Shown here piece after piece: positions 32,109 through 53,566 of a DNA stretch of 64,000 nt. The number at the start of each line of letters is the position of its first letter. Position 1 is the stretch's first letter. The DNA lies in assembly GCA_902788095.1 (NCBI GenBank), contig CADAIT010000002.1, positions 119,047 through 183,046 of the forward strand, in the 5' to 3' direction. The notes beneath the pieces were generated by a model. That model had not been told where the DNA came from. It ran no database searches and worked only from the letters and a program-made list of their open reading frames with translations. Position numbers and translations under genes: made by a program. Origin of the DNA: an uncultured Bacteroidia bacterium. Its GTDB lineage: Bacteria > Bacteroidota > Bacteroidia > Bacteroidales > UBA932.

Positions 32109-32503
32109 GGGGGTGTTTTGGTTTTGACAGCGCTGATGCTGGACGGTAAGCATGTCGGGCCTCGGAACCTGTCCCGTAAAACGCAGATTCCAAAAAATCA
32201 GTTGCCAACAACAACTATGCACTCGCTGCTTAATTTGCCAAGCAAATTAACTTAATCCGCGACGCCAAGGCTGCGCCGCCGACGAGTATCCCTCGGCCCT
32301 TCCGCCTCTTAAGGGCCCCTCAAGGGGTATCATTCATTTGGGGCTGCTCCGGCGGACGCCTTTAAAGCCGGCTAAGACTTAAAGGCTAAGGGAAGCTTCG
32401 CCCGCCTTCCGGCAGGGCTTCTTCGAAAACCAAAGGACGGATAAGCATGTAGAAAGCCGCCTGGTGCGACGTTTGGACAGCGGTTCGAGTCCGCTCACCT
32501 CCA
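32109..32503 (+). ncRNA. ssrA: Transfer-messenger RNA (tmRNA)
   Basis: One-piece tmRNA of about 395 bases that rescues stalled ribosomes with SmpB. The acceptor strand GGGGGTG (32109-32115) pairs with CACCTCC (32496-32502), followed by discriminator A. The 3' T-arm contains GGTTCGAGTCC. The 5' side has the usual TTTTGGTTTTGACAGCG stretch. The tag frame reads GCC AAC AAC AAC TAT GCA CTC GCT GCT TAA, giving ANNNYALAA after a CAGTT that resembles the normal UAGUC before the resume codon. The exact resume codon is inferred. CCA is not encoded. Confidence 0.95.
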
Positions 32504-32512
32504 CTTTAATAC

Positions 32513-52603: not shown

Positions 52604-53566
52604 TTATACCTGACGGCCGCGACATCGGCGGATGGCAGGAAATTGGTGACAAATCTGCCAAAAGTACTTGAAGGGCAGCAGGCTGCCGTATTTTACGCTT
52701 TTTACCAGCGTAAACAGGCACACGAACGCAAATCGCTCCCACAGCGGGCGGTTGGGGTCGCACAGGCGGACAAGCGAGCCGATGTAGTAGTTCCGCCGAA
52801 TCACCTTCTGCCTGGCTTCCTGCCGCTGTGCGCGGTCATGCACGGCCTTGGCGTCCGGCACTATGCCCACTTTCAGCTTATGATACCGTGCCCGGTTGCA
52901 CCAGTCGTCGTCCTGCCCATAGAGCGGAAACAGTTCCTCCTCGAACGGCCCAATGGTCTTCAGGGCCGATACCGGCACCAGCCAGTGCGCCGCCATCACA
53001 CGCTTTACCTCGATAGGCTCTGCGGAGGGTATGGGGTTACAAACCCATGGCCACCCTCGGCCGTGTAAGAGGGAGGGGCCCACAGCCGCGTCGTCAGACG
53101 CGCTGCGAGTTGGGAGGGGCCGGAGCGAAGCGGAGGCGGTTTGTAACCCCATACCCTCCGCAGAGCCAGCATACAGTTTGGAAAATTGGACGTCGAGGGC
53201 CTTGTAGCCGTCCTGGTACTGGAGGGGGCTCAGGACGGCGTAGTCCGAGTGGGCCTCGGCGGCGGCAACGAGGGCCTCCAGGGCGCCGGGGGCCAGCCAG
53301 GCATCCTGGTTGAGGAGGTACACGTAGTCGTAGCCCCGTTCAAGGGCATATTTGAAGCCCAGGTTGTTGGCCTTGGAGAAGCCCAGGTTCTCCGCGCTGC
53401 GCACCAGACGCGCCTGCGGGAAACGGGCGGCCACGTCGTCTGCGCTGCCGTCGGTGCTGTCGTTGTCCACCACGAACACATCGGCCCACGAGGGGACGGA
53501 GCCGAGGCAACGGTCCAGCCACTGGCGGCCGTTGTAGGTAACTACGATGACAAGGACGCGTTTCAT
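52604..53566 (-). CDS. Glycosyltransferase family 2 with an in-frame palindromic insertion
   Basis: A 320-aa GT-A enzyme, rhamnosyltransferase-like. The N-terminus VLVIVVTYNGRQWLDRCLGSV and VVDNDSTDGS bind the nucleotide sugar, and YVYLLNQDAWL is the DxD-like region. Residues 134-184 (starting GSAEGMGLQT, ending CNPIPSAEP) are encoded by a 152-bp palindromic element; removing 153 bases rejoins KLYA to IEVKRVMAAHWLVP in frame. The insertion lies before the predicted acceptor/catalytic region, so activity is uncertain. It overlaps the next GT gene by four bases. Confidence 0.85.
   Translation of the reverse strand: MKRVLVIVVTYNGRQWLDRCLGSVPSWADVFVVDNDSTDGSADDVAARFPQARLVRSAENLGFSKANNLGFKYALERGYDYVYLLNQDAWLAPGALEALVAAAEAHSDYAVLSPLQYQDGYKALDVQFSKLYAGSAEGMGLQTASASLRPLPTRSASDDAAVGPSLLHGRGWPWVCNPIPSAEPIEVKRVMAAHWLVPVSALKTIGPFEEELFPLYGQDDDWCNRARYHKLKVGIVPDAKAVHDRAQRQEARQKVIRRNYYIGSLVRLCDPNRPLWERFAFVCLFTLVKSVKYGSLLPFKYFWQICHQFPAIRRCRGRQV
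53016..53167. mobile_element. 152-bp palindromic element inserted in a coding gene
   Basis: Two perfect 30-bp inverted arms (53016-53045 and 53138-53167, beginning GGCTCTGCGGAGGGTATGGG) enclose about 92 bases. Inside, GGGAGGGGCC occurs twice (about 53071 and 53112), with smaller inverted pairs. The element is open in the host frame and adds 51 codons together with one flanking base. No transposase is encoded, as in MITE- or RPE-type elements. No clear target duplication beyond a single base is visible. Confidence 0.8.

What the first reader, a model, noticed from the sequence alone, without database searches (positions are those of the whole stretch)
53016..53167. Palindromic element inserted in frame inside a glycosyltransferase gene
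Seen: perfect 30-bp inverted arms around a 152-bp segment in the middle of a GT2 gene. Removing 153 bases (element plus one) restores a continuous GT2 frame (KLYA joined to IEVKRVMAAHWLVP), while the element itself has no stop codon in the host frame and adds 51 residues. Established: such coding-compatible palindromes are known from Rickettsia (RPE), and MITE-like elements without transposase occur widely. Inference: this lineage may carry a family of mini-elements able to land in genes without breaking them, creating new protein segments.
Basis: partly seen in the sequence, partly recalled or inferred. Interest (0 to 1): 0.82.

Follow-up and report, generated by a model that had tools for sequence, protein, structure and literature searches.

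The report
Invertible hairpin element inside bacterial genes
The palindrome is one copy of a family of small DNA inserts in rumen Bacteroidales genomes that sit in frame inside ordinary genes, appear to build their matching ends by copying the neighbouring gene sequence backwards, and often differ in orientation between relatives.

Summary
In detail: perfect 30-bp arms around a 92-bp core, in frame in a GT2 gene. Of 125 copies tested, 89 had gene homology on both flanks and 71 of those are in frame and open, in both orientations, in genes such as ksgA, rsmH and a Mur ligase. The core has covarying helices and a loop whose variants match a downstream partner, as a pseudoknot would require. The long arms are not the family's signature: mostly only the inner 5-12 bp are shared. 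Unoccupied orthologs indicate that one arm is native host sequence and the other its inverted copy. Of 32 orthologous pairs with conserved arms, 14 have the core flipped, including this gene. Best reading: a protein-coding palindromic element, like Rickettsia RPEs in effect, that gains its long inverted repeat at each site by fold-back copying of host DNA and is then inverted. The mobilising enzyme is unknown; divergent Y1/RAYT-like transposases are present but unlinked. Family, frame and inversion are well supported; the copying mechanism is inference.

The parts
52604..53566 (-). host gene, GT2-family glycosyltransferase, open frame of 320 aa through the element
53016..53045 (+). left arm of the element (30 bp); inferred to be the templated inverted copy. 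Inner 5 bp AAACC (53041-53045) belong to the family's own end
   Evidence: arm conservation by position; native-arm comparison (inference)
53046..53137 (+). conserved core, 92 nt; family orientation is the plus strand, antisense to the gene
53046..53065 (+). helix P2: CATGGCC / loop ACCCTC / GGCCGTG
53054..53058 (+). proposed pseudoknot 5' strand CCCTC, in the P2 loop
53069..53073 (+). proposed pseudoknot 3' strand GAGGG
53079..53114 (+). variable helix P3, closed by CCC (53079-53081) and GGG (53112-53114)
53120..53136 (+). P4 hairpin region CCGGAGCGAAGCGGAGG
53138..53167 (+). right arm (30 bp); read on the minus strand it encodes GSAEGMGLQT and is inferred to be native gene sequence. Inner GGTTT (53138-53142) is the family's own end
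   Evidence: inference

Best explanation
A small non-autonomous mobile element. Shown: a conserved, structured core of about 60-140 nt with short complementary ends (RAAYC...GRTTY in most copies) occurs at many sites; inside genes it usually keeps the frame; the outer arms are largely specific to the site; core orientation differs between orthologs that share their arms. Inferred: the core inserts next to a host sequence, its short ends pair, and the 3' end folds back and primes synthesis along the adjacent host strand for about 20-25 nt. This makes an inverted copy of the host flank, so one arm is host and the other is the copy. The long inverted repeat then undergoes known consequences of template switching: arm homogenisation and inversion of the spacer. 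In-frame copies persist because frame-breaking ones in needed genes are lost. In the GT2 gene the arm at 53138-53167 is taken as native, 53016-53045 as the copy, and the core as flipped since the split from G005.
For: Family. Structure: 97.1% of cells paired against 75.3% shuffled, 548 double-change cells against 156; loop/partner pairs CCCTC/GAGGG (146), CCCCC/GGGGG (5), CCCGT/ACGGG (2), CCCGC/GCGGG (1), CCCAT/ATGGG (1) all match. Arms largely not carried with the core: 14 same-genome pairs with core identity above 0.88 agree at arm positions 1-5 (0.79-1.00) and average about 0.45 at positions 6-20, against 0.38 for unrelated pairs and about 0.77 for close orthologs; in G014, L250 and L252 have identical cores (0 of 69 differences) but share only an inner run of 5 bp and 11 of 20 arm bases. 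One arm native: in the DPM-type GT2 gene 24 of 24 parsed unoccupied orthologs (6 of 30 not parsed) give a net insertion of 108-111 nt, against 102 for core plus one arm and 131 for two; in the Mur ligase gene the left arm IPEGIHTPE corresponds to VPEGVDTTG (G019), IPEDIGSVQ (G028) and IPEGVSVP (G034); nrnA against G000 gives 87 nt, predicted 88. Copying polarity: at arm positions 8-18 there are 53 left-G/right-T, 12 T/G, 4 A/C, 4 C/A and 15 other mispairs against 1276 Watson-Crick pairs, with the same bias in sense and antisense copies. Inversion: 14 of 32 orthologous pairs with both arms at least 0.77 identical are flipped; G000 against G005 and G019 in this gene. Precedent, in passages read: short foldback inverted duplications at yeast breaks (PMC11724301); arm homogenisation and spacer inversion by template switching (PMC8604942).
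Against: In G061 the GT2 site lacks the inner 18 bp of the arm (net 147 nt, closer to two arms). In DPM the native-arm model leaves 6 nt unexplained. Loops of ksgA, the Mur ligase and nrnA vary in length, so 'closer to one arm' is weak there: ksgA 23 of 27 for each of two insertions, Mur ligase 16 of 17 parsed (13 of 30 not parsed), nrnA 24 of 24 parsed (6 of 30 not parsed) but mostly because their loops are longer. rsmH was inconclusive. Recent copies share more than 5 bp of arm in part: G014 L250 and L253 share 18 of 20 arm bases, L250 and L251 an inner run of 12; the G016 trio L237-L239 share 14-15 of 20; G016 L243-L249 share arms as part of a larger repeat. The arms have a weak consensus (about GGAGGGTRT...YYC) that plain host copying does not predict. 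The mispair asymmetry could reflect selection on the folded strand; inner against outer positions is not significant after reducing redundancy (p 0.08). A few coreless inverted repeats with similar arms exist (L162:2504, L145:285). No enzyme, no transposition event and no strain-level empty site was observed.
Confidence: 0.55

Rival explanations
1. Both arms are the element's own P1 stem of an RNA or single-stranded DNA hairpin, inserted whole, and evolve fast by compensatory change because structure on the element's top strand is selected; cores stay similar by gene conversion between copies.
For: P1 pairs 97.6% with 21 of 22 pairs changed on both sides; G-T/T-G mispairs exceed A-C/C-A 65 to 8 at positions 8-18; L012 has arms identical to its ortholog L081 but a core piece of about 58 nt shared with L014, which looks like core exchange; weak arm consensus; partial arm sharing in recent G014 and G016 copies.
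Against: Identical cores with arms at 11-12 of 20 bases (L250/L252, L253/L254) need arms that change far faster than the core. Net insertions match one arm in DPM, 24 of 24 parsed. Native-like peptides in the Mur ligase gene.
Confidence: 0.28
2. A REPIN-like system: hairpins mobilised as single-stranded DNA by a RAYT/Y1 transposase encoded elsewhere in the genome (this could also supply the first step of the best explanation).
For: G000 has three proteins of 290-323 aa found by a Y1_Tnp search, one of them below the family cut-off; two reach Y1_Tnp in Pfam and match REP_Tyr_transpos below its cut-off (43.4 and 24.8 bits, cut-off 80). Element orientation does not follow the host gene.
Against: No core-like sequence in the 12 fetched stretches of 3.2-3.3 kb around such genes. 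Among 23 genus genomes, elements occur in 12 of 16 with and 3 of 7 without a Y1 match (Fisher p 0.18). REPs have conserved rather than site-specific arms (recalled).
Confidence: 0.3
3. A site-specific invertible switch like the Bacteroides invertons, selected for phase variation.
For: Frequent inversion; both orientations are open in frame in the GT2 gene.
Against: Invertons share recombinase sites across loci (recalled); here arms differ between loci. Several hosts are housekeeping genes. The flipped share is similar at all divergences.
Confidence: 0.08
4. Assembly artefact of metagenome-assembled genomes (false inverted duplications).
For: The named records are MAGs or uncultured assemblies; inverted repeats are hard for short reads.
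Against: The same sites recur in independent assemblies with conserved arms; frame is usually kept.
Confidence: 0.03

Closest known systems
Rickettsia palindromic elements (RPE) and Wolbachia relatives
   Same: 100-150 bp palindromic repeats, intergenic and fused in frame in conserved proteins, shared at orthologous sites (PMC2229807 and PMC3767692, passages read)
   Different: No sequence relation was tested. Here the arms are largely site-specific, the core has a loop/partner pair that covaries like a pseudoknot, and orientation differs between orthologs; the RPE passages read mention none of these.
REPIN/RAYT systems
   Same: short hairpin elements in many copies, possibly moved by a Y1/HUH transposase; divergent Y1/RAYT-like genes present
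   Different: inside genes in frame, long site-specific arms, no linkage to the transposase gene in the 12 loci examined
Bacterial MITEs (ERIC, RUP, Correia/NEMIS)
   Same: small, non-autonomous, inverted repeats, some with open frames (PMC2229807, passages)
   Different: only short shared ends and no clear target-site duplication by eye in 14 displayed junctions
Foldback / template-switch inverted duplications
   Same: short templated inverted copies next to a junction, arm homogenisation, spacer inversion (PMC11724301 and PMC8604942, passages; PMC8794818, abstract and outline)
   Different: those are sporadic mutations, in yeast or in reconstructed RNA gene histories; here the same outcome is tied to a repeated mobile core

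Membership tests
Rickettsia palindromic element | short palindromic repeat fused in frame in conserved protein genes | tested here: met
   71 of 89 in frame and open; RrnaAD, Mur ligase, MraW, DHHA1 and GT2 domains found in five filled genes besides the window gene
Rickettsia palindromic element | sequence homology to a described RPE family | not tested
   no RPE sequence was fetched; the relation claimed is functional analogy only
MITE | terminal inverted repeats shared by all copies | tested here: not met
   5 bp shared across the family, up to 12 bp in some recent pairs; arms differ beyond that
MITE | direct target-site duplication | tested here: inconclusive
   no consistent duplication by eye in 14 displayed G014/G016 junctions; short candidate repeats at L089 and L178
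MITE | parent transposon with the same ends | tested here: inconclusive
   none around the 12 Y1-like genes; no systematic search for a parent was made
REPIN/RAYT | RAYT gene flanked by the repeats | tested here: not met
   no core-like motif in 12 loci around Y1-like genes; not every Y1-like gene was examined
Inverton | shared recombinase recognition arms | tested here: not met
   arms are largely site-specific
Known structured RNA (Rfam 15) | match at or above a family's gathering score | tested here: not met
   9 matches in 13 loci at E up to 5, all below gathering scores

The most novel reading that the evidence does not exclude
A mobile element class without fixed long terminal repeats: a pseudoknotted core inserts, then uses its short ends to fold back and copy 20-25 nt of host DNA in reverse, so that each insertion carries an inverted duplication of its own target. 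The resulting host-derived palindrome makes the core a reversible in-frame switch inside housekeeping proteins, and target choice may be guided by pairing or by a RAYT-like enzyme.
Probability: 0.33. Interest if true: 0.9.

Novelty: new variant of a known kind. Interest (0 to 1): 0.78.

Why it matters
It adds rumen Bacteroidales to the groups with coding-compatible palindromic repeats (Rickettsia and Wolbachia in passages read; enterobacteria and Methanocaldococcus seen only in a listing and a reference list), and it offers a possible answer to a puzzle: how separate insertions of one core each get a near-perfect but different inverted repeat. If one arm really is host and the other its copy, the insertion signature (inverted rather than direct target duplication) is unusual and searchable elsewhere. 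Inversion means the same gene can encode two different inserted peptides, which makes the origin and tolerance of new protein segments testable in several housekeeping enzymes.

Tried and rejected
Rfam search gave nothing usable. A sequence-defined arm family was rejected because arms differ between copies. Host-mRNA selection as the cause of the G-U bias was rejected: sense 25 G-U-type against 7 A-C-type mispairs, antisense 28 against 4, other copies 35 against 2. Insertion of the core into pre-existing coreless hairpins found little support but is not excluded: the scan listed mostly variant cores, terminator-like repeats and other families, with a few coreless repeats whose arms look similar (L162:2504, L145:285). 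L254 flanks were not syntenic enough for empty sites. rsmH and most nrnA comparisons were ambiguous. Dyad symmetry inside the arms was weak. Pairing of the core loop ACCCTC with the arm motif GAGGGT as target recognition was looked at by eye in a few variant cores and not supported. Gene names: truA, truB, trmB, mtaB, yggS and ligA are my reading of translations, not database calls; Pfam gives RrnaAD for what I call ksgA, Mur ligase domains for murE, MraW for rsmH, DHHA1 for nrnA, and GT2 for the window gene and the DPM-type gene. The genus was not named by any tool.

Because arm sharing is larger than first written, I lowered the best explanation from 0.60 to 0.55 and the novel case from 0.35 to 0.33, and raised the first rival from 0.25 to 0.28.

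Papers: PMC2229807, PMC3767692, PMC8604942 and PMC11724301 as passages, PMC8794818 as abstract and outline; all others only as search listings. I found no report of this family in those nine searches; most subscription papers are not held.

Full report
The arms at 53016-53045 and 53138-53167 are perfect 30-mers around 92 nt, inside an open 320-aa GT2 frame on the minus strand. The single strand folds far better than shuffled sequence (z -8.95).

The core is repeated, the long arm is not. A search of the own genome with the element found 15 matches, one the element itself and two of them its arms pairing with each other; the covariance model gave 15 hits at E up to 1e-4. Near copies occur in 22 of 61 genomes searched, all 22 among the 37 of the same genus; 15 of those 37 and all 24 from other families had none. 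With the model, 3 of 149 genomes drawn from the order match: this genome, another genus of the family (5 hits) and one genome of another family (1 hit); a second genome of the own genus had none (strict filters). The scan pattern fixed part of the core, so conservation of those bases is inflated in that set.

Parsing the loci held at that point gave 134 copies; 124 have arms of at least 20 bp, 107 of these with at most 2 mismatches and 67 with none, G-T counted as paired. On a 53-copy alignment the proposed structure pairs in 97.1% of cells against 75.3% in shuffles and 37-47% in slid versions, with 548 double-change cells against 156; the count of further pair types, however, is not exceptional (89 against 84.9, reached by 61 of 500 shuffles). 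Much of the signal comes from the arms, which I believe are copied, so it is not proof of RNA function. The core gives separate evidence: pairs at the base of P2, in P3 and in P4 change on both sides, although the outer variable P3 pairs fail in 9-10 of 53 copies. The proposed pseudoknot does not vary in that alignment; in a wider pattern search 155 of 157 hits, which I count as true cores, have a P2 loop CCCNN that matches the downstream NNGGG. Only nine of these, in four combinations, differ from CCCTC/GAGGG, so the test rests on those nine. The two remaining hits, in L164 and L184, look spurious and also match.

Insertion in genes. Of 125 copies tested, 89 had a homologous gene running across both flanks: 71 are in frame and open (32 sense, 39 antisense), 16 frame-shifted, 2 in frame with a stop; 36 had no such gene. 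Some of the 18 exceptions lie between genes (L089), but I did not check each one.

Inversion. In this gene G005 and G019 carry the element at the same site with the core in the opposite orientation to G000. Across 177 pairs with an element between matching flanks, 76 are in opposite orientation: 10 of 25 above 85% flank identity, 18 of 34 at 80-85, 25 of 57 at 75-80, 21 of 57 at 70-75, 2 of 4 below. Some of these may be separate insertions in the same loop. Among the 32 pairs whose two arms are each at least 0.77 identical, which are more surely one insertion, 14 are flipped. Pairs are not independent.

The arms belong largely to the site. Same-genome pairs with core identity above 0.88 (14 pairs) agree at arm positions 1-5 and average about 0.45 at positions 6-20, against 0.38 for unrelated pairs and about 0.77 for close orthologs. 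In G014 six cores (L250-L254, two of them in L253) carry four arm types; the five compared differ at no more than 2 of 69 core positions. L250 and L252 have identical cores and share 11 of 20 arm bases, L253 and L254 identical cores and 12 of 20. But L250 and L253 share 18 of 20, and L250 and L251 an inner run of 12; two further G014 copies (L255) have a variant core. In G016 the trio L237-L239 has nearly identical cores and 14-15 of 20 arm bases alike, and L243-L249 share arms as part of a larger repeat. So the shared end is longer than 5 bp in some recent groups.

One arm is native. I collected unoccupied orthologs for five genes plus this one. In the DPM-type GT2 gene the unoccupied loop is nearly constant in length and the net insertion is 108-111 nt in 24 of 24 parsed orthologs (6 of 30 not parsed by that pattern), against 102 for core plus one arm and 131 for core plus two. 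In the Mur ligase gene the residues of one arm align with host residues of G019, G028 and G034, less well with G000, and 16 of 17 parsed orthologs are closer to one arm (13 of 30 not parsed). nrnA against G000 gives 87 nt, predicted 88; all 24 parsed are closer to one arm, but most because their loops are longer (6 of 30 not parsed), and for G000 either arm could be the native one. For the two ksgA insertions 23 of 27 each are closer to one arm, after leaving out three orthologs with inserts of their own (L281, L289, L295). For the window gene 5 of 6 are closer to one arm (1 of 7 not parsed); G061 is not, and I read it as a secondary loss between short GAG repeats because the more distant G019 is occupied. 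rsmH could not be decided.

Copying direction. Mispairs at arm positions 8-18 are strongly one-sided: left G with right T 53, T with G 12, A with C 4, C with A 4, other 15; after reducing redundancy 28 G-U type against 3 A-C type. At positions 25 and beyond the bias is gone (4 against 9), though the inner/outer contrast is not significant in the reduced set (p 0.08). The bias is the same for sense and antisense insertions, so it is not set by the host transcript. Either the right arm is copied from the left with wobble errors, or the folded top strand is selected. Published work describes short foldback inverted duplications at breaks (PMC11724301, passages), spacer inversion and arm homogenisation by template switching (PMC8604942, passages) and creation of perfect stems by the same process (PMC8794818, abstract).

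Mobilisation remains open. Genomes of the genus carry about 300-aa proteins with weak Y1/RAYT similarity, but no element lies in the 12 stretches around them that I fetched, and presence does not separate genomes with and without elements (12 of 16 against 3 of 7; Fisher p 0.18). Core exchange between loci also seems to occur: L012 keeps the arms of its ortholog L081 while part of its core resembles L014.

Conclusion: a family, not found in the papers searched, of protein-coding palindromic elements with largely site-specific, probably host-templated arms and a frequently inverted core. Family, frame and inversion are firm; the native-arm claim is well supported in two or three genes; the foldback step is inference.

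Noticed in passing
L341 (G019 rsmH) and L404 (G019 nrnA): A much shorter insert sharing the residues ASLR-D/E-PVRANAP, with site-specific arms, seems to be a deletion derivative or second family that retains little more than a P4-like hairpin.
   Followed up: partly
L342 (G000 rsmH), L051, L050, L061 (GT2 orthologs): Other repeat-like inserts or segments (SLDFARDDKEG, SSVISSGVERSREIS, SSVISSEVEKS, SCPAPTSSCPAPT) occur in the same proteins, several in the same loops.
   Followed up: no
L289 (G023 ksgA), L295 (G015 ksgA), L102, L112: The same ksgA loop carries different versions of the element in several species while most relatives examined are empty, which suggests repeated insertion at a permissive spot.
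   Followed up: partly
L012 and L014 (own genome, contig C1): Both cores carry a similar piece of about 58 nt in place of TAAGA, absent from the L012 orthologs L081 and L086.
   Followed up: partly
L162:2504 and L145:285: Inverted repeats of 27 and 22 bp with short spacers and no core, whose arms resemble family arms; possibly deleted copies or pre-existing hairpins.
   Followed up: no
L002:2055-2227 and L015:2503-2642: Another inverted-repeat family (ATCCTCGTTCAAA) in the own genome.
   Followed up: no
L102, L112: GGACCAGGTCC-type palindromic repeats in inverted pairs.
   Followed up: no
L150: A core pattern match in a contig labelled Lachnospiraceae, probably misbinned.
   Followed up: no
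window 32109-32504: tmRNA gene, tag ADSKKSVANNNYALAA.
   Followed up: no
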